This document shows positions 11,793 to 16,940 of a stretch of DNA of 18,446 bases, one piece after another. How positions within the stretch are numbered: position 1 is the stretch's first letter; the number at the start of each line of letters is the position of its first letter. The stretch is from Deltaproteobacteria bacterium (GTDB lineage: Bacteria > Myxococcota > Polyangia > Polyangiales > B10-G4): contig JAFDCW010000012.1 in assembly GCA_019312705.1 (NCBI GenBank), positions 1 to 18,446 of the forward strand, read 5' to 3'. The notes beneath the pieces were generated by a model. That model did not search any database, was not told where the DNA came from, and saw only the letters and a list, made by a program, of their open reading frames with translations. A program made the position numbers and the translations under genes.

Positions 11793-11916
11793 CCGAAGAG
11801 TGTCCCTCTATGCCCGAAGAAGGCCTCGCCTGGCCCTCTCCATCATATTGGGCCGCCGTTGGCGTCCCTGAGGGCCTGCTTGCCAGGGGCGCCGTAGCAC
11901 GGTACCCAGCGTCGCC

Positions 11917-13730
<1,814 letters not shown>

Positions 13731-13731
<1 letters not shown>

Positions 13732-14357
13732 TGAAGCAGCTCGCATTTTGGGTCTTCGTCGCCGGCGTCGTCATCTCCGCGTGCTACGGCGCCAAGCTCG
13801 CCCCCGTCGAAGAGGGGGCCGGGTCGGGTCCCGATGGAGTGGTCACCCCGGCGGACCGCATCAGCTCCTGGTGGGACGCCGCGGCCATGCCGTTCAGCGT
13901 GGGCGTTTTGATGATGGTCGGCGGGGGGCTCCTCGGTCGCCACATCGAGAAGCTCGCCCACGCATCGGCCCACGAAGGCCAGGTCAGCGCCAGCGGGGAC
14001 GGCCCCGGCGAGGTGATGGACAAGATCGGCCAAGAGCTCGACAAGCTTCCCGCAGGCAGTCTCGGGGACTCAGTCGCGGAGGTCCAGGCGGGCCTCGACC
14101 GCGTGCTCGAGGAGCTGGTGCCCGAGTTCTTGTTGCACCGGACGCGCATGATCGCCGACATGGGCCTCGAGCACTTCGCCGAGATGATCGGCCAGTTCTC
14201 GTCGTTCGAGCGCAACACGGCGCGGGCCTGGAGCGCGCTGACCGACGGCGTGCCGTCGGAAGCCGAGGTCTCCGTCGAACGGGCCAAGGCCGCGTTGGTC
14301 CAGGCCAAAGAGGCCTTCGACCGCGCCGCAGATGCGTCAGGCTCGGCCTCGGCGTAG
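13731..14357 (+). CDS. Small membrane protein coupled to the OPT transporter
   Basis: I do not recognise this 208-residue protein. It begins MKQLAFWVFVAGVVISACYG, either a membrane helix or a lipoprotein signal with an ISAC box at Cys18, and has a second helix at about 52-69 (PFSVGVLMMVGGGLLG). The remainder is soluble and helical: amphipathic stretches such as MDKIGQELDKLPAG, VQAGLDRVLEELVPEFLLHRTRMIADMGLEHFAEMIGQF and an Ala/Lys/Glu-rich end. A GGAGG site lies 6 nt before ATG 13731, and the ATG overlaps the OPT stop. The arrangement suggests a dedicated accessory or regulatory subunit of the transporter. A role as a periplasmic or cytoplasmic coupling factor is inference. Confidence 0.78.
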
Positions 14358-14365
14358 AGGTTCCC

Positions 14366-15430
14366 ATGGGCAACGACACTTCCATCGCAGGTTTTGCTCT
14401 CGGATTCGCTCTGTCGGTCGTGGCTGGATGCGGTGCGACGCCGCCACAGCCCCAAGCAGGCACGGCTGCGGCGAGTGGTGACCGAGCTTCAGCCGTCGCT
14501 GCGCCCCGCCGGGGAGGGCGCGCCTTCGATCTTCAGGGGCACCGGGGCGCCCGAGGTCACGCGCCCGAAAACACGCTGGTCGGCCTTCGTCGCGCCCTCG
14601 CCATCGGGGTGACCACCCTCGAGATAGATCTCGCCCTCACCGCCGACGGCGTCGTCGTCGTACACCACGACGAAACCCTCAATGCCGACCTCACCCGGGG
14701 GCCCGATGGGGAGTACATCGACGGTACCGCCGCCGTGCCCCTGCGCCAGCTCTCCGTCGAGGCCCTCTCCCAGCTGGACGTCGGACGCATTCGAGCCGGC
14801 ACGGCGTACGCGATGCGTTTCCCCGATCAGGTGCCGGCCGACGGGGCGCGCATCCCCACCCTCGCCGCGGTCTTCGCCTTTGTCGAGGAGGTGAGCGGCG
14901 GCACCACTCGCTACAACCTCGAGCTGAAGCGCTCTCCCATCCATCCGGACCGAACCGCCGACCCCGAGACCTTCGCCCGCGCGGCTCTCGCGGTGGTGGA
15001 CGCCGCCGCGGTGCGTAACCGAGTGAACTTCCAGTCATTCGACTTCGCCTGCCTCGACGCCCTTCGTGCCCTAGGCGGCGATTCCTCCGACGATTTGACC
15101 CTCGCCTGCCTGACGGTCGCCGAGGACGACCCCACCCCCTGGTTCGCTGGGCGCAGCCTCGGAGATCACGACGGCTCGTGGCCCGCCTTGGTCGCCGCCG
15201 CGGGTTGTGACACCTGGTCCCCGCGCTTCGAAGATCTCACCGCCGACACCATCCGCGAAGCTCATGGTCTCGGCCTCCGCGTCATCCCCTGGACCGTGAA
15301 CGACCCCGCGCAAATCGCCGAAGCCCATGATCTCGGCGTCGACGGCCTCATCTCCGACTACCCCGACCGCGTCCGAGCCGACCTCGCGGCCCGGGGCGAA
15401 GAGCTGCCGATCGCATTTCCCGCAGACTGA
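14366..15430 (+). CDS. Glycerophosphodiester phosphodiesterase lipoprotein
   Basis: A predicted metal-dependent GDPD-family enzyme that hydrolyses glycerophosphodiesters to glycerol-3-phosphate and an alcohol, at the cell envelope. The signal peptide ends VVAGC (Cys22) and a short Ala/Gln/Pro stalk follows. The TIM-barrel motifs are QGHRGARGHAPENT (57-70, His59, Glu68), EIDLALTADGVVVVHHDETL (Glu86, Asp88, His101), NLELK, and near the end GLRVIPWTVN and GVDGLISDYPD. The length of 354 residues is usual. ATG 14366 has AGAGG 5 nt upstream; longer in-frame readings back to 13748 overlap the previous gene and are not used. It lies 8 bp after the small membrane protein, so it is probably in the same operon. 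It could feed phosphate or glycerol scavenging. Confidence 0.92.
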   Translation: MGNDTSIAGFALGFALSVVAGCGATPPQPQAGTAAASGDRASAVAAPRRGGRAFDLQGHRGARGHAPENTLVGLRRALAIGVTTLEIDLALTADGVVVVHHDETLNADLTRGPDGEYIDGTAAVPLRQLSVEALSQLDVGRIRAGTAYAMRFPDQVPADGARIPTLAAVFAFVEEVSGGTTRYNLELKRSPIHPDRTADPETFARAALAVVDAAAVRNRVNFQSFDFACLDALRALGGDSSDDLTLACLTVAEDDPTPWFAGRSLGDHDGSWPALVAAAGCDTWSPRFEDLTADTIREAHGLGLRVIPWTVNDPAQIAEAHDLGVDGLISDYPDRVRADLAARGEELPIAFPAD

Positions 15431-15461
15431 AGGTCGATTTCGGGGACGGTATAAATTTTCT

Positions 15462-15637
15462 GGCTCTTCCGGGAACCGGGTGGGTGATTTCGACGAAATC
15501 CGGTAAGCCAGAGGAGTCAAGAAGATGGCCTGCGGCTTTCGCAACCGAGACCGCTTTCGAATGGCCATCTACTTCCACCTCGGCCTCGATATGACGCCCG
15601 AGCCCCTGCTTTCACCCACCTGAATTCCAGAAGAGCC
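15462..15637 (+). mobile_element. Internally deleted ISL3-like element (MITE-like)
   Basis: A 176-bp element with imperfect inverted ends. GGCTCTTCCGGGAAC... on the left and, read from the right, GGCTCTTCTGGAATT... match at 21 of the first 26 bases, and both continue into GGTGGGTGA. Flanking 8-bp sequences AATTTTCT (15454-15461) and AACTTTCT (15638-15645) match at 7 of 8, consistent with the 8-bp duplications made by ISL3-family insertion sequences. The interior keeps a scrap of a transposase C-terminus and a small palindrome GATTTCG-A-CGAAATC (15486-15500). It cannot move on its own but might be mobilised by a full-length relative elsewhere in the genome. Confidence 0.78.
15507..15623 (+). 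pseudogene. C-terminal scrap of an ISL3-type transposase
   Basis: The frame from 15507 to the TGA at 15621-15623 encodes ARGVKKMACGFRNRDRFRM followed by AIYFHLGLDMTP and a short tail. The pattern K-x-K-x-A-x-GFRN-x4-FR is the hallmark end of ISL3/IS204/IS1001 transposases as I remember them. A TAA at 15504-15506 closes the frame upstream, so the first 90% of the gene has been deleted. It sits inside the inverted ends described above, which links it to the mini-IS. Confidence 0.65.
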
Positions 15638-15695
15638 AACTTTCTTACTTTCGCCTTCGCGAAAGTAAGAAAGTTTATACCGTCCCCCCTCGCGA

Positions 15696-16940
15696 CTAGA
15701 TTCGGTACGGGACGCTGACCTGGAAGGTCGTCTGCTGGAAGTGCGGGAAGTGGGCGCCGCGGACGGCCCGAGCGACGCAGGAGCCCGTGGCGGTGCCGGC
15801 GAACTGGCCGGTGACGCGGCTGCTCGCAACTCGGCCGGTAGAGCCTCTGACGGTGATGGTCGTGTTGGCGACGCCGTGGCGTCCGTTGCGGGCGCCGCAG
15901 CGGGCGGCGGCTTCGCGGACCGAGCGTAGGGCGGCGCGAACGCTGTCGCGAGACGGAGTCGCGGGGAGGGTGCTCGGCGGCTGCGCGCGCGCGGCCTCCC
16001 TGCCCACGGCCTGGTTCATGAATTCGTCGAGCGTTTGGGCGCCGGTCCCTCGGGCGTCGACCTGTGCGCTCTCAGGCTGCCGATCCGGGCGCCTCTCCGG
16101 GCGTCTCTCGTGACGTGAACTGCGGTCGCTGTGGTTCCGGCGTCCGTCCCGAGGCCGGGCATCGCCGCCCGGAGCGCCTTGCTCTTCGGCGATGTCGGGC
16201 GCCGGGTCCTCACCACGGTCCTCCCCGTGGGCACCTTCCGGTGCGGCTGCTGGGGCGGCGAGGGTGTTCGGCACCGCGCGCCCCTCGGCCCCGGTCGCCG
16301 ATGGCGCCGGCTCTCTCCGGGTGTGCTCGCCCGCCGCGATGGGGCCGGTCCCCGTCGACGGGCCCGTGGCAGCCACCACGGAGGACGGCCCGGTCACCAG
16401 GACCGCGATGATCGCCGCGGCCGCCAAGACGACGATGCCGCCGACCGCGGTGACCGCGATGAGCAGGCCACGGTCCCGTTTCCTCTGCACAACCGGCTGG
16501 AAGACCGGGCTGCCGAGGCCTCCCCCGAGGGGCGCTCTCGTGCCGAGCCTGAGCAGGTCGTCGACGCTCTCCGGGCTGGCCCTCTCGAGGCCTGATTCCT
16601 GGTTCGCATCGGCAGCGCTGGCGAGAGCACGAATGTCGATCAGTCCCGAGGCTTCGCCCGAAACGCCTCCGGTTGGAGCGCGGGAACCGACCTCGGTGGC
16701 CGGCGACCCCGAAGAGCCTCCGGTAGAAAGACCGGTCGCGAGGGCGCGGAGGTTCTGGAGCGAAAAGAGCACGGAGCTTTCATTGCGCTGCCCAGTCCTC
16801 GCCCGGTCCTCGGCGACCGGCGTCGGCCTGCAGACGATGAGTTCGCTGCACCTCTTGCACCGAACCCTGAAGGCCCTGCCGGCCACCTTGTCGTCGGCGA
16901 TTGAGTACCTGGCGCTGCACTTGGCGCAGACGATCTTCAT
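15696..16940 (-). CDS. Zinc-finger membrane protein with AgmX/PglI-like C-terminus
   Basis: The 414-residue protein starts with an MJ0042-type zinc ribbon (MKIVCAKCSARYSI; Cys5, 8, 28, 31). A flexible region carries two short motifs, NESSVLFSLQNL (53-64) and ASGLIDIRALA (97-107). A single transmembrane helix (about 158-183) follows, then a long Ala/Pro/Arg/Asp-rich linker, then a folded C-terminal domain of about 85 residues: VRAALRSVREAAARCG ... TITVRGSTGRVASSRVTG ... CVARAVRGAHFPHF ... VSVPYRI. This end matches the AgmX/PglI C-terminal type, a TonB-C-like fold with a conserved Cys pair. The layout places the zinc finger in the cytoplasm and the C-terminus in the periplasm. Relatives in myxobacteria include gliding-motility proteins (AgmX/GltJ), but most are uncharacterised. 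GAGGG lies 7 nt before ATG 16940. Confidence 0.85.
   Translation of the reverse strand: MKIVCAKCSARYSIADDKVAGRAFRVRCKRCSELIVCRPTPVAEDRARTGQRNESSVLFSLQNLRALATGLSTGGSSGSPATEVGSRAPTGGVSGEASGLIDIRALASAADANQESGLERASPESVDDLLRLGTRAPLGGGLGSPVFQPVVQRKRDRGLLIAVTAVGGIVVLAAAAIIAVLVTGPSSVVAATGPSTGTGPIAAGEHTRREPAPSATGAEGRAVPNTLAAPAAAPEGAHGEDRGEDPAPDIAEEQGAPGGDARPRDGRRNHSDRSSRHERRPERRPDRQPESAQVDARGTGAQTLDEFMNQAVGREAARAQPPSTLPATPSRDSVRAALRSVREAAARCGARNGRHGVANTTITVRGSTGRVASSRVTGQFAGTATGSCVARAVRGAHFPHFQQTTFQVSVPYRI

What the first reader, a model, noticed from the sequence alone, without database searches (positions are those of the whole stretch)
15442..15687. A mini ISL3 element nested inside a long palindrome
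Seen directly: GGGGACGGTATAAA and its complement bracket the region, a 176-bp element with GGCTCTTC inverted ends sits inside, and 8-bp flanks AATTTTCT/AACTTTCT match at 7 of 8. Removing the element plus one flank rebuilds a palindrome with 29-bp arms and a CTTC loop. The palindrome is thus the older structure and the insertion a dated event. Mini-IS caught in the arm of a palindrome suggests the element targets hairpins or cruciforms.
Basis: partly seen in the sequence, partly recalled or inferred. Interest (0 to 1): 0.72.

Follow-up and report, generated by a model that had tools for sequence, protein, structure and literature searches.

The report
Stunted jumping gene inside mobile palindrome
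A shortened copy of one jumping gene landed inside a small DNA palindrome that itself looks like a dispersed remnant of a different jumping gene, and a close relative still carries the undisturbed palindrome at the same spot; the nesting is real but needs no special liking for hairpins.

Summary
A 176-bp element (15462-15637) with GGCTCTTC inverted ends and 8-bp flanks equal at 7 of 8 sits in one arm of a 62-bp palindrome. The predicted empty site exists: L001 (genome G001; neighbouring protein 98% identical) has the uninterrupted palindrome between the same flanks. The element is an internally deleted ISL3-family element keeping both ends and the last ~30 codons of the transposase gene. The palindrome is a dispersed repeat: 26 intact copies in G001 plus one 1177-bp element with the same 26-bp ends around a probable Y1 (REP-associated type) transposase, resembling published TIRYT/TIRtron repeats. 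Hairpin targeting is not supported: the 9 ISL3 insertions with readable target duplications lie in ordinary DNA, and the palindrome is 62 of the 81 non-coding bases between two convergent genes. The element's own other copies could not be examined. Side finding: in 26 of 26 palindromes the arms match perfectly although 5 arm positions vary between copies; the only arm mismatch seen is in the split copy.

The parts
15442..15461 (+). outer part of the left palindrome arm (20 nt); its last 8 bases, 15454-15461 AATTTTCT, are the left copy of the target duplication, with T at 15456 where the relative has C
15462..15637 (+). 176-bp internally deleted ISL3-family element, GGCTCTTC...GAAGAGCC ends
15525..15623 (+). 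remnant of the 3' end of an ISL3 transposase gene (32 codons and stop, read in frame; the first codon need not be a start)
15638..15645 (+). right copy of the 8-bp target duplication, AACTTTCT
15638..15687 (+). rest of the palindrome: remaining left arm, CTTC centre, whole right arm
14366..15430 (+). upstream neighbour, glycerophosphodiester phosphodiesterase-like protein (PF03009), ends 11 bp before the palindrome
15696..16940 (-). downstream convergent neighbour, zinc-ribbon protein (PF13717); its stop codon starts 8 bp after the palindrome

Best explanation
Two unrelated mobile elements are nested. First, a 62-bp palindrome made of two back-to-back terminal repeats of a Y1-transposase element (TIRtron-like) came to lie between two convergent genes in an ancestor shared with G001. 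Later, in the window's lineage, a non-autonomous ISL3 derivative (both ends plus the 3' tip of the transposase gene, middle deleted) was inserted into the AT-rich part of one arm, presumably by an ISL3 transposase acting in trans, duplicating 8 bp. One duplicate has since changed (C to T at 15456). Shown: the empty orthologous site, the 8-bp duplication, the ISL3 remnant, the dispersed palindrome family and the Y1-like element with the same ends. Inferred: transposase supplied in trans, origin by internal deletion, mobilisation of the palindromes by the Y1 protein, and that the target was taken as ordinary AT-rich non-coding DNA.
For: Empty site with the same flanks: 159 bases ending inside the left arm at 96.9% identity and 20 of 20 bases downstream. 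Transposase tail remnant aligned with the 3' end of a full-length ISL3, L172 (NF033550 at 329 bits against a cut-off of 180; PF01610 at 247 bits), whose left end GGCTCTTCCGGAATTCGTGTGGGT resembles the window's. Related full-length elements: L196 left end GGCTCTTCTGGGTTTTGTGTGGGT; eight copies in G371 with ends GGCGCTTCAGGAATTCGTGTGGG, 7 of 8 with perfect 8-bp duplications. Palindrome family: 26 copies plus one 1177-bp element with the same 26-bp ends. Non-hairpin targets in 9 of 9. Non-coding gap of 81 bp, 62 of it palindrome.
Against: The element's own parent and other copies were not found: 0 full copies in 96 relatives, plasmids, phages or viral contigs. The left 60 bases align with L172 only over the terminal repeat. 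L172's right end is imperfect (GGTGCTTC) and its right flank is masked, so its duplication cannot be read. The Y1-like protein scores below curated cut-offs. 'Ordinary target' is argued from relatives, not from this element.
Confidence: 0.88

Rival explanations
1. The ISL3 derivative, through its transposase, prefers hairpins or cruciforms, and the palindrome was chosen because it extrudes.
For: It sits in a 29-bp-arm palindrome with a predicted single-strand fold of -34.4 kcal/mol; other IS families are known to target REP palindromes (PMC1525189, passages). L146, an ISL3 without readable duplication and so outside the count, has a 9-bp-stem hairpin about 22 bases from its end, and L142, also without duplication, a 6-bp stem at its assumed junction.
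Against: Of 9 relatives with target duplications the longest stem within 40 bases is 3-6 bp, within the shuffled range; the insertion is not at the tip; the palindrome is 77% of the available non-coding gap; one case only, and noticed because it lies in a palindrome.
Confidence: 0.07
2. The palindrome is mainly a host feature, a two-way transcription terminator between convergent genes, and not a mobile element.
For: It fills most of the gap between convergent genes; its arms are unchanged against G001.
Against: Of 25 other G001 copies, a rough frame-based look called 7 convergent, 13 tandem, 4 divergent, 1 unclear; the same sequence forms the ends of an element with a transposase-like gene; one other TIR-like family exists beside a second such gene.
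Confidence: 0.08
3. G001 lost the ISL3 derivative by exact excision, so the empty palindrome is not ancestral.
For: The centre of the palindrome is inverted between the two records, so the site has undergone some change.
Against: 26 of 26 palindromes in G001 are uninterrupted, so the empty form is the normal one; exact excision of such an element is the rarer event (general knowledge).
Confidence: 0.03

Closest known systems
ISL3 family insertion sequences and miniature derivatives of IS
   Same: GGCTCTTC-type ends, 8-bp target duplication, transposase tail homologous to NF033550/PF01610 proteins
   Different: only 176 bp, no transposase; exact parent not found
TIRtrons / TIRYT repeats (Di Nocera et al. 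2013, PMC3733652: abstract, section 16 and passages read); TnpA_REP subclass 2.1 with DnaA_C-like tails (Quentin et al. 2018, PMC6006769: section 20 and passages read)
   Same: Y1-like protein with DnaA_C-like tail flanked by inverted repeats starting GGGGAC; the repeats also form dispersed families and dimers
   Different: motif is GGGGACGG, 7 of 8 of the published GGGGWSAS; protein matches are below curated cut-offs; the dimers here are near-perfect palindromes with 1-5 nt centres
REPINs of RAYTs (Bertels and Rainey 2011, PMC3116915: passages read)
   Same: two inverted end repeats forming a hairpin, conserved ends, variable middle; insertion of DNA into REPINs is already proposed there as a source of single REPs
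   Different: no unpaired GTAG or CGTC foot; arms pair to their outermost base
IS elements that target REP sequences (Tobes and Pareja 2006, PMC1525189: passages read)
   Same: an IS-derived element splits a dispersed palindromic repeat
   Different: there, targeting was accepted only with 4 or more copies and over 45% association, for IS3, IS110, IS4, IS256 and IS5; 'ISL3' has 0 occurrences in the text; here there is one copy

Membership tests
ISL3-family element (non-autonomous derivative) | terminal inverted repeats of the ISL3 type (GGCTCTTC; type recalled, then checked on loci with ISL3 transposases) | tested here: met
   window ends compared with L148, L149, L172, L196
ISL3-family element (non-autonomous derivative) | 8-bp target duplication | tested here: met
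   7 of 8 equal now; the relative has a single AACTTTCT at the site
ISL3-family element (non-autonomous derivative) | sequence homology to an ISL3 element inside the ends | tested here: met
   32-aa remnant matches transposase tails in 6 of 282 genomes; nucleotide alignment with L172
autonomous ISL3 insertion sequence | complete transposase gene | tested here: not met
   six-frame translation shows only the tail
hairpin- or REP-targeting IS | several independent insertions in such targets | tested here: not met
   0 of 9 ISL3 relatives; other copies of this very element could not be examined
TIRYT / TIRtron | Y1 transposase of the REP-associated type with helix-turn-helix tail | tested here: inconclusive
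   Y1_Tnp 20 bits (cut-off 23), Bac_DnaA_C 22.1 (31.5), REP_Tyr_transpos 31.1 (80); E 8e-4, 1.6e-4, 2e-7; HIH and a later tyrosine read by eye
TIRYT / TIRtron | gene flanked by long inverted repeats with GGGGWSAS | tested here: inconclusive
   26-bp perfect repeats around the L133 gene; start GGGGACGG fits 7 of 8 motif positions
TIRYT / TIRtron | the same repeats dispersed in the genome without the gene | tested here: met
   26 palindromes in G001
classical REP (GTAG or CGTC superfamily) | unpaired GTAG or CGTC foot at one end of a hairpin | tested here: not met
   arms pair to the outermost base in 26 of 26; CGTC occurs inside the paired arm only

The most novel reading that the evidence does not exclude
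The palindromes of this family keep their arms identical through hairpin-templated correction (template switching during replication, or recopying at transposition), and the insertion is a natural knock-out of that process: by parting the arms it stopped the correction, so the split copy carries the only arm mismatch seen (C to T at 15456, in the duplicate outside the remaining hairpin), while the duplicate inside the remaining hairpin is unchanged. The inverted centre between window and G001 would be a second trace of the arms meeting.
Probability: 0.18. Interest if true: 0.55.

Novelty: new member of a known kind. Interest (0 to 1): 0.33.

Why it matters
It is a clearly ordered nesting of two mobile elements in an uncultured lineage, with the empty site in hand, and it shows that a miniature ISL3 can be recognised by a transposase-tail remnant. 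The palindrome family, in which every varying arm position is matched by its partner in 26 of 26 copies, is a clean test case for how bacterial genomes keep palindromes perfect. If the element did target hairpins it would add ISL3 to the IS families known to use REP-like sites, but the evidence here does not support that.

Tried and rejected
One search failed through a wrong frame and was repeated with eight proteins; the ninth was scanned later.

DNA search for the element in 96 relatives gave 1 weak hit (56 bases at 75%, G017), which proved to be an ISL3 transposase tail and not a copy. Plasmids: no match. Phages: one 34-base piece at 88%, E 0.02, in Burkholderia phage FLC9, over the transposase-tail part; not followed. 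Viral contigs, end pattern: 0. End-pattern searches: 1 of 183 genomes and 2 of 377; the backward control gave 3 hits, so I take these as chance. The viral hit to the palindrome pattern has no second arm and is taken as chance. The palindrome pattern also gave one lone 2-mismatch hit in G026 among 96 genomes, not examined. Rfam: 0 matches in the window.

Dropped before the target count: L184 (no duplication, 1 of 8); L142 (3 of 8), L146 with its overlapping locus L160 (1 of 8) and L159 (1 of 8), which have paired ends but no duplication. L172 and L196 were not usable (masked flank, partial element). The remaining PF01610 loci gave no end pair under my criteria.

The downstream gene gave only a 54% identical match on another contig of G001, so synteny beyond 20 bp downstream is untested. 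A wider hunt for relatives of the L172 transposase gave 2 of 79 genomes. An assembly artefact cannot be excluded for the inverted centre: L001's contig ends 20 bp past the palindrome. No protein structure was predicted and the search for homologous proteins was not used.

Full report
OBSERVATION. The 176-bp element at 15462-15637 has ends GGCTCTTCCGGGAACCGGGTGGGTGA and, on the other strand, GGCTCTTCTGGAATTCAGGTGGGTGA. It is flanked by AATTTTCT and AACTTTCT. Taking out the element and one flank copy gives a 62-bp palindrome with 29-bp arms and centre CTTC.

EMPTY SITE. One scan of genome contigs with the OPT transporter encoded at 11917-13731 found a 98% identical protein in MAG 'Deltaproteobacteria bacterium B10_G4' (L001, genome handle G001); several of the next hits (65-73% identical) bear names such as Myxococcales, Myxococcota, Polyangiaceae and Sandaracinus. 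L001:9519-9580 is the uninterrupted palindrome. The 159 window bases that end inside the left arm align there at 96.9%, and the 20 bases after the palindrome are the same in both. The arms equal the rebuilt arms of the window; the centre is GAAG, the exact reverse complement of CTTC. So the palindrome was there before the two lineages parted and the element came later in the window's lineage. The left flank copy differs from the relative at one base, 15456 (T for C).

THE PALINDROME. In G001 the arm occurs 28 times forward and 27 times reverse with up to 3 mismatches. I looked at all 28 forward places: 26 are intact palindromes of 59-62 bp (25 fetched ones and L001), one is a pair of ends of a 1177-bp stretch (L133), one is a lone 3-mismatch end (L137). 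The 26 have perfectly complementary arms of 28-30 nt; they are 20 distinct sequences if read in either orientation. Within the outer 28 arm bases five positions vary among copies (12, 14, 20, 21, 27), with 0 mismatches between the arms in 26 of 26 copies. L133 has 26-bp perfect terminal repeats of this sequence around a 334-aa ORF that matches Y1_Tnp, REP-associated tyrosine transposase and Bac_DnaA_C weakly, each below its curated cut-off. Di Nocera and colleagues (PMC3733652; abstract, section 16 and passages read) describe TIRYT genes flanked by inverted repeats, many with the motif GGGGWSAS, which also form dispersed families, often as dimers. Quentin and colleagues (PMC6006769; section 20 and passages read) place most of these in subclass 2.1, with DnaA_C-like tails. 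The palindromes are best read as dimers of such repeats. Of 96 genomes searched, G001 has the family and one other has a lone 2-mismatch hit.

THE ELEMENT. One frame contains MACGFRNRDRFRMAIYFHLGLDMTPEPLLSPT and a stop. This matches ends of ISL3 transposases in 6 of 282 genomes of G001's phylum. The left end aligns mainly over the terminal repeat. The simplest reading is an ISL3 element with its middle deleted. No exact parent and no second copy was found.

DOES IT TARGET HAIRPINS? G371 has eight copies of an ISL3 with related ends; seven are 98.0-98.9% identical to the eighth. 7 of 8 have perfect 8-bp duplications. L148 and L149 in other genomes have them too. For these 9 sites the longest stem in the rebuilt 72 bases is 3-6 bp, within the range of 200 shuffles each; the window's site gives 19 bp in the same frame against a shuffled maximum of 9. 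The target 8-mers hold 2-7 A/T of 8, the window's 6. Two ISL3 copies without a duplication, not counted, have somewhat longer stems nearby: L146 a 9-bp stem about 22 bases from its end, L142 a 6-bp stem at the assumed junction. G001 has no detected ISL3 transposase, so its 26 empty palindromes say little about preference. In the window the neighbouring genes stop at 15430 and 15696; without insert and duplication the gap is 81 bp, 62 of it palindrome. An insertion that spares both genes would mostly land in the palindrome. Hairpin targeting is neither needed nor supported, though the element's own other copies could not be seen.

ARM SYMMETRY. Five positions vary yet never mismatch in 26 copies; the centre is inverted between orthologues; and the one copy with parted arms has the one mismatch. 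Together this suggests that adjacent arms are kept alike. Template switching at imperfect palindromes is a known process (PMC7202029, seen only as a search listing with the start of its abstract). Young copies made as hairpins would explain it as well. In a second repeat family of G001, whose 21-base repeats lie some 35 bases farther apart, 2 of 16 close inverted pairs have unlike arms (places, paired by hand and counted); this shows that unlike arms can persist in such repeats, and it fits the idea only if the longer spacing matters. With a single mismatch this stays a hypothesis.

PRINT. ISL3 is not among the families that Tobes and Pareja list as targeting REPs (PMC1525189, passages). Bertels and Rainey already propose that DNA inserts into REPINs (PMC3116915, passages). 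Literature searches combining ISL3 with REP sequences (1 paper), ISL3 family with repetitive extragenic palindromic (46 papers of which 15 were listed) and ISL3 with palindrom, target site and MITE (1 paper) showed no listed title about ISL3 elements in palindromes; apart from PMC1525189 and PMC3116915, both in the listing, I opened none of the listed papers, and only the held open library was searched.

VERDICT. A real, well-ordered nesting of two known kinds of element, ordinary in mechanism as far as can be seen.

Noticed in passing
G001, L189 (C30:14145-14693) and the places: A second, 44% identical Y1-like transposase gene in the same relative is flanked by another repeat, GGGGACGCGAGGTTGCTTAATTGTCTTACGC, doubled on each side; with up to 3 mismatches its first 21 bases occur 41 times forward and 31 reverse in that genome.
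   Followed up: partly
window 15655-15658 and L001:9548-9551: The 4-nt centre of the palindrome is CTTC in the window and GAAG in the relative: an inversion of the centre, or an assembly artefact.
   Followed up: partly
window 14301-15461 against L001: Identity is uneven: 69-90% per 100 bases over most of the phosphodiesterase gene and upstream of it, 95% in the 100 bases from 15301, and 94.8% over 11830-14324 in a separate local alignment; possibly recombination.
   Followed up: no
L001:9581-9600: The relative's contig ends 20 bp past the palindrome, as assemblies can do near repeats.
   Followed up: no
L176, L179, L181, L183-L187 (genome G371): Eight near-identical full-length ISL3 copies, seven with perfect 8-bp duplications: a recently active element.
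   Followed up: partly
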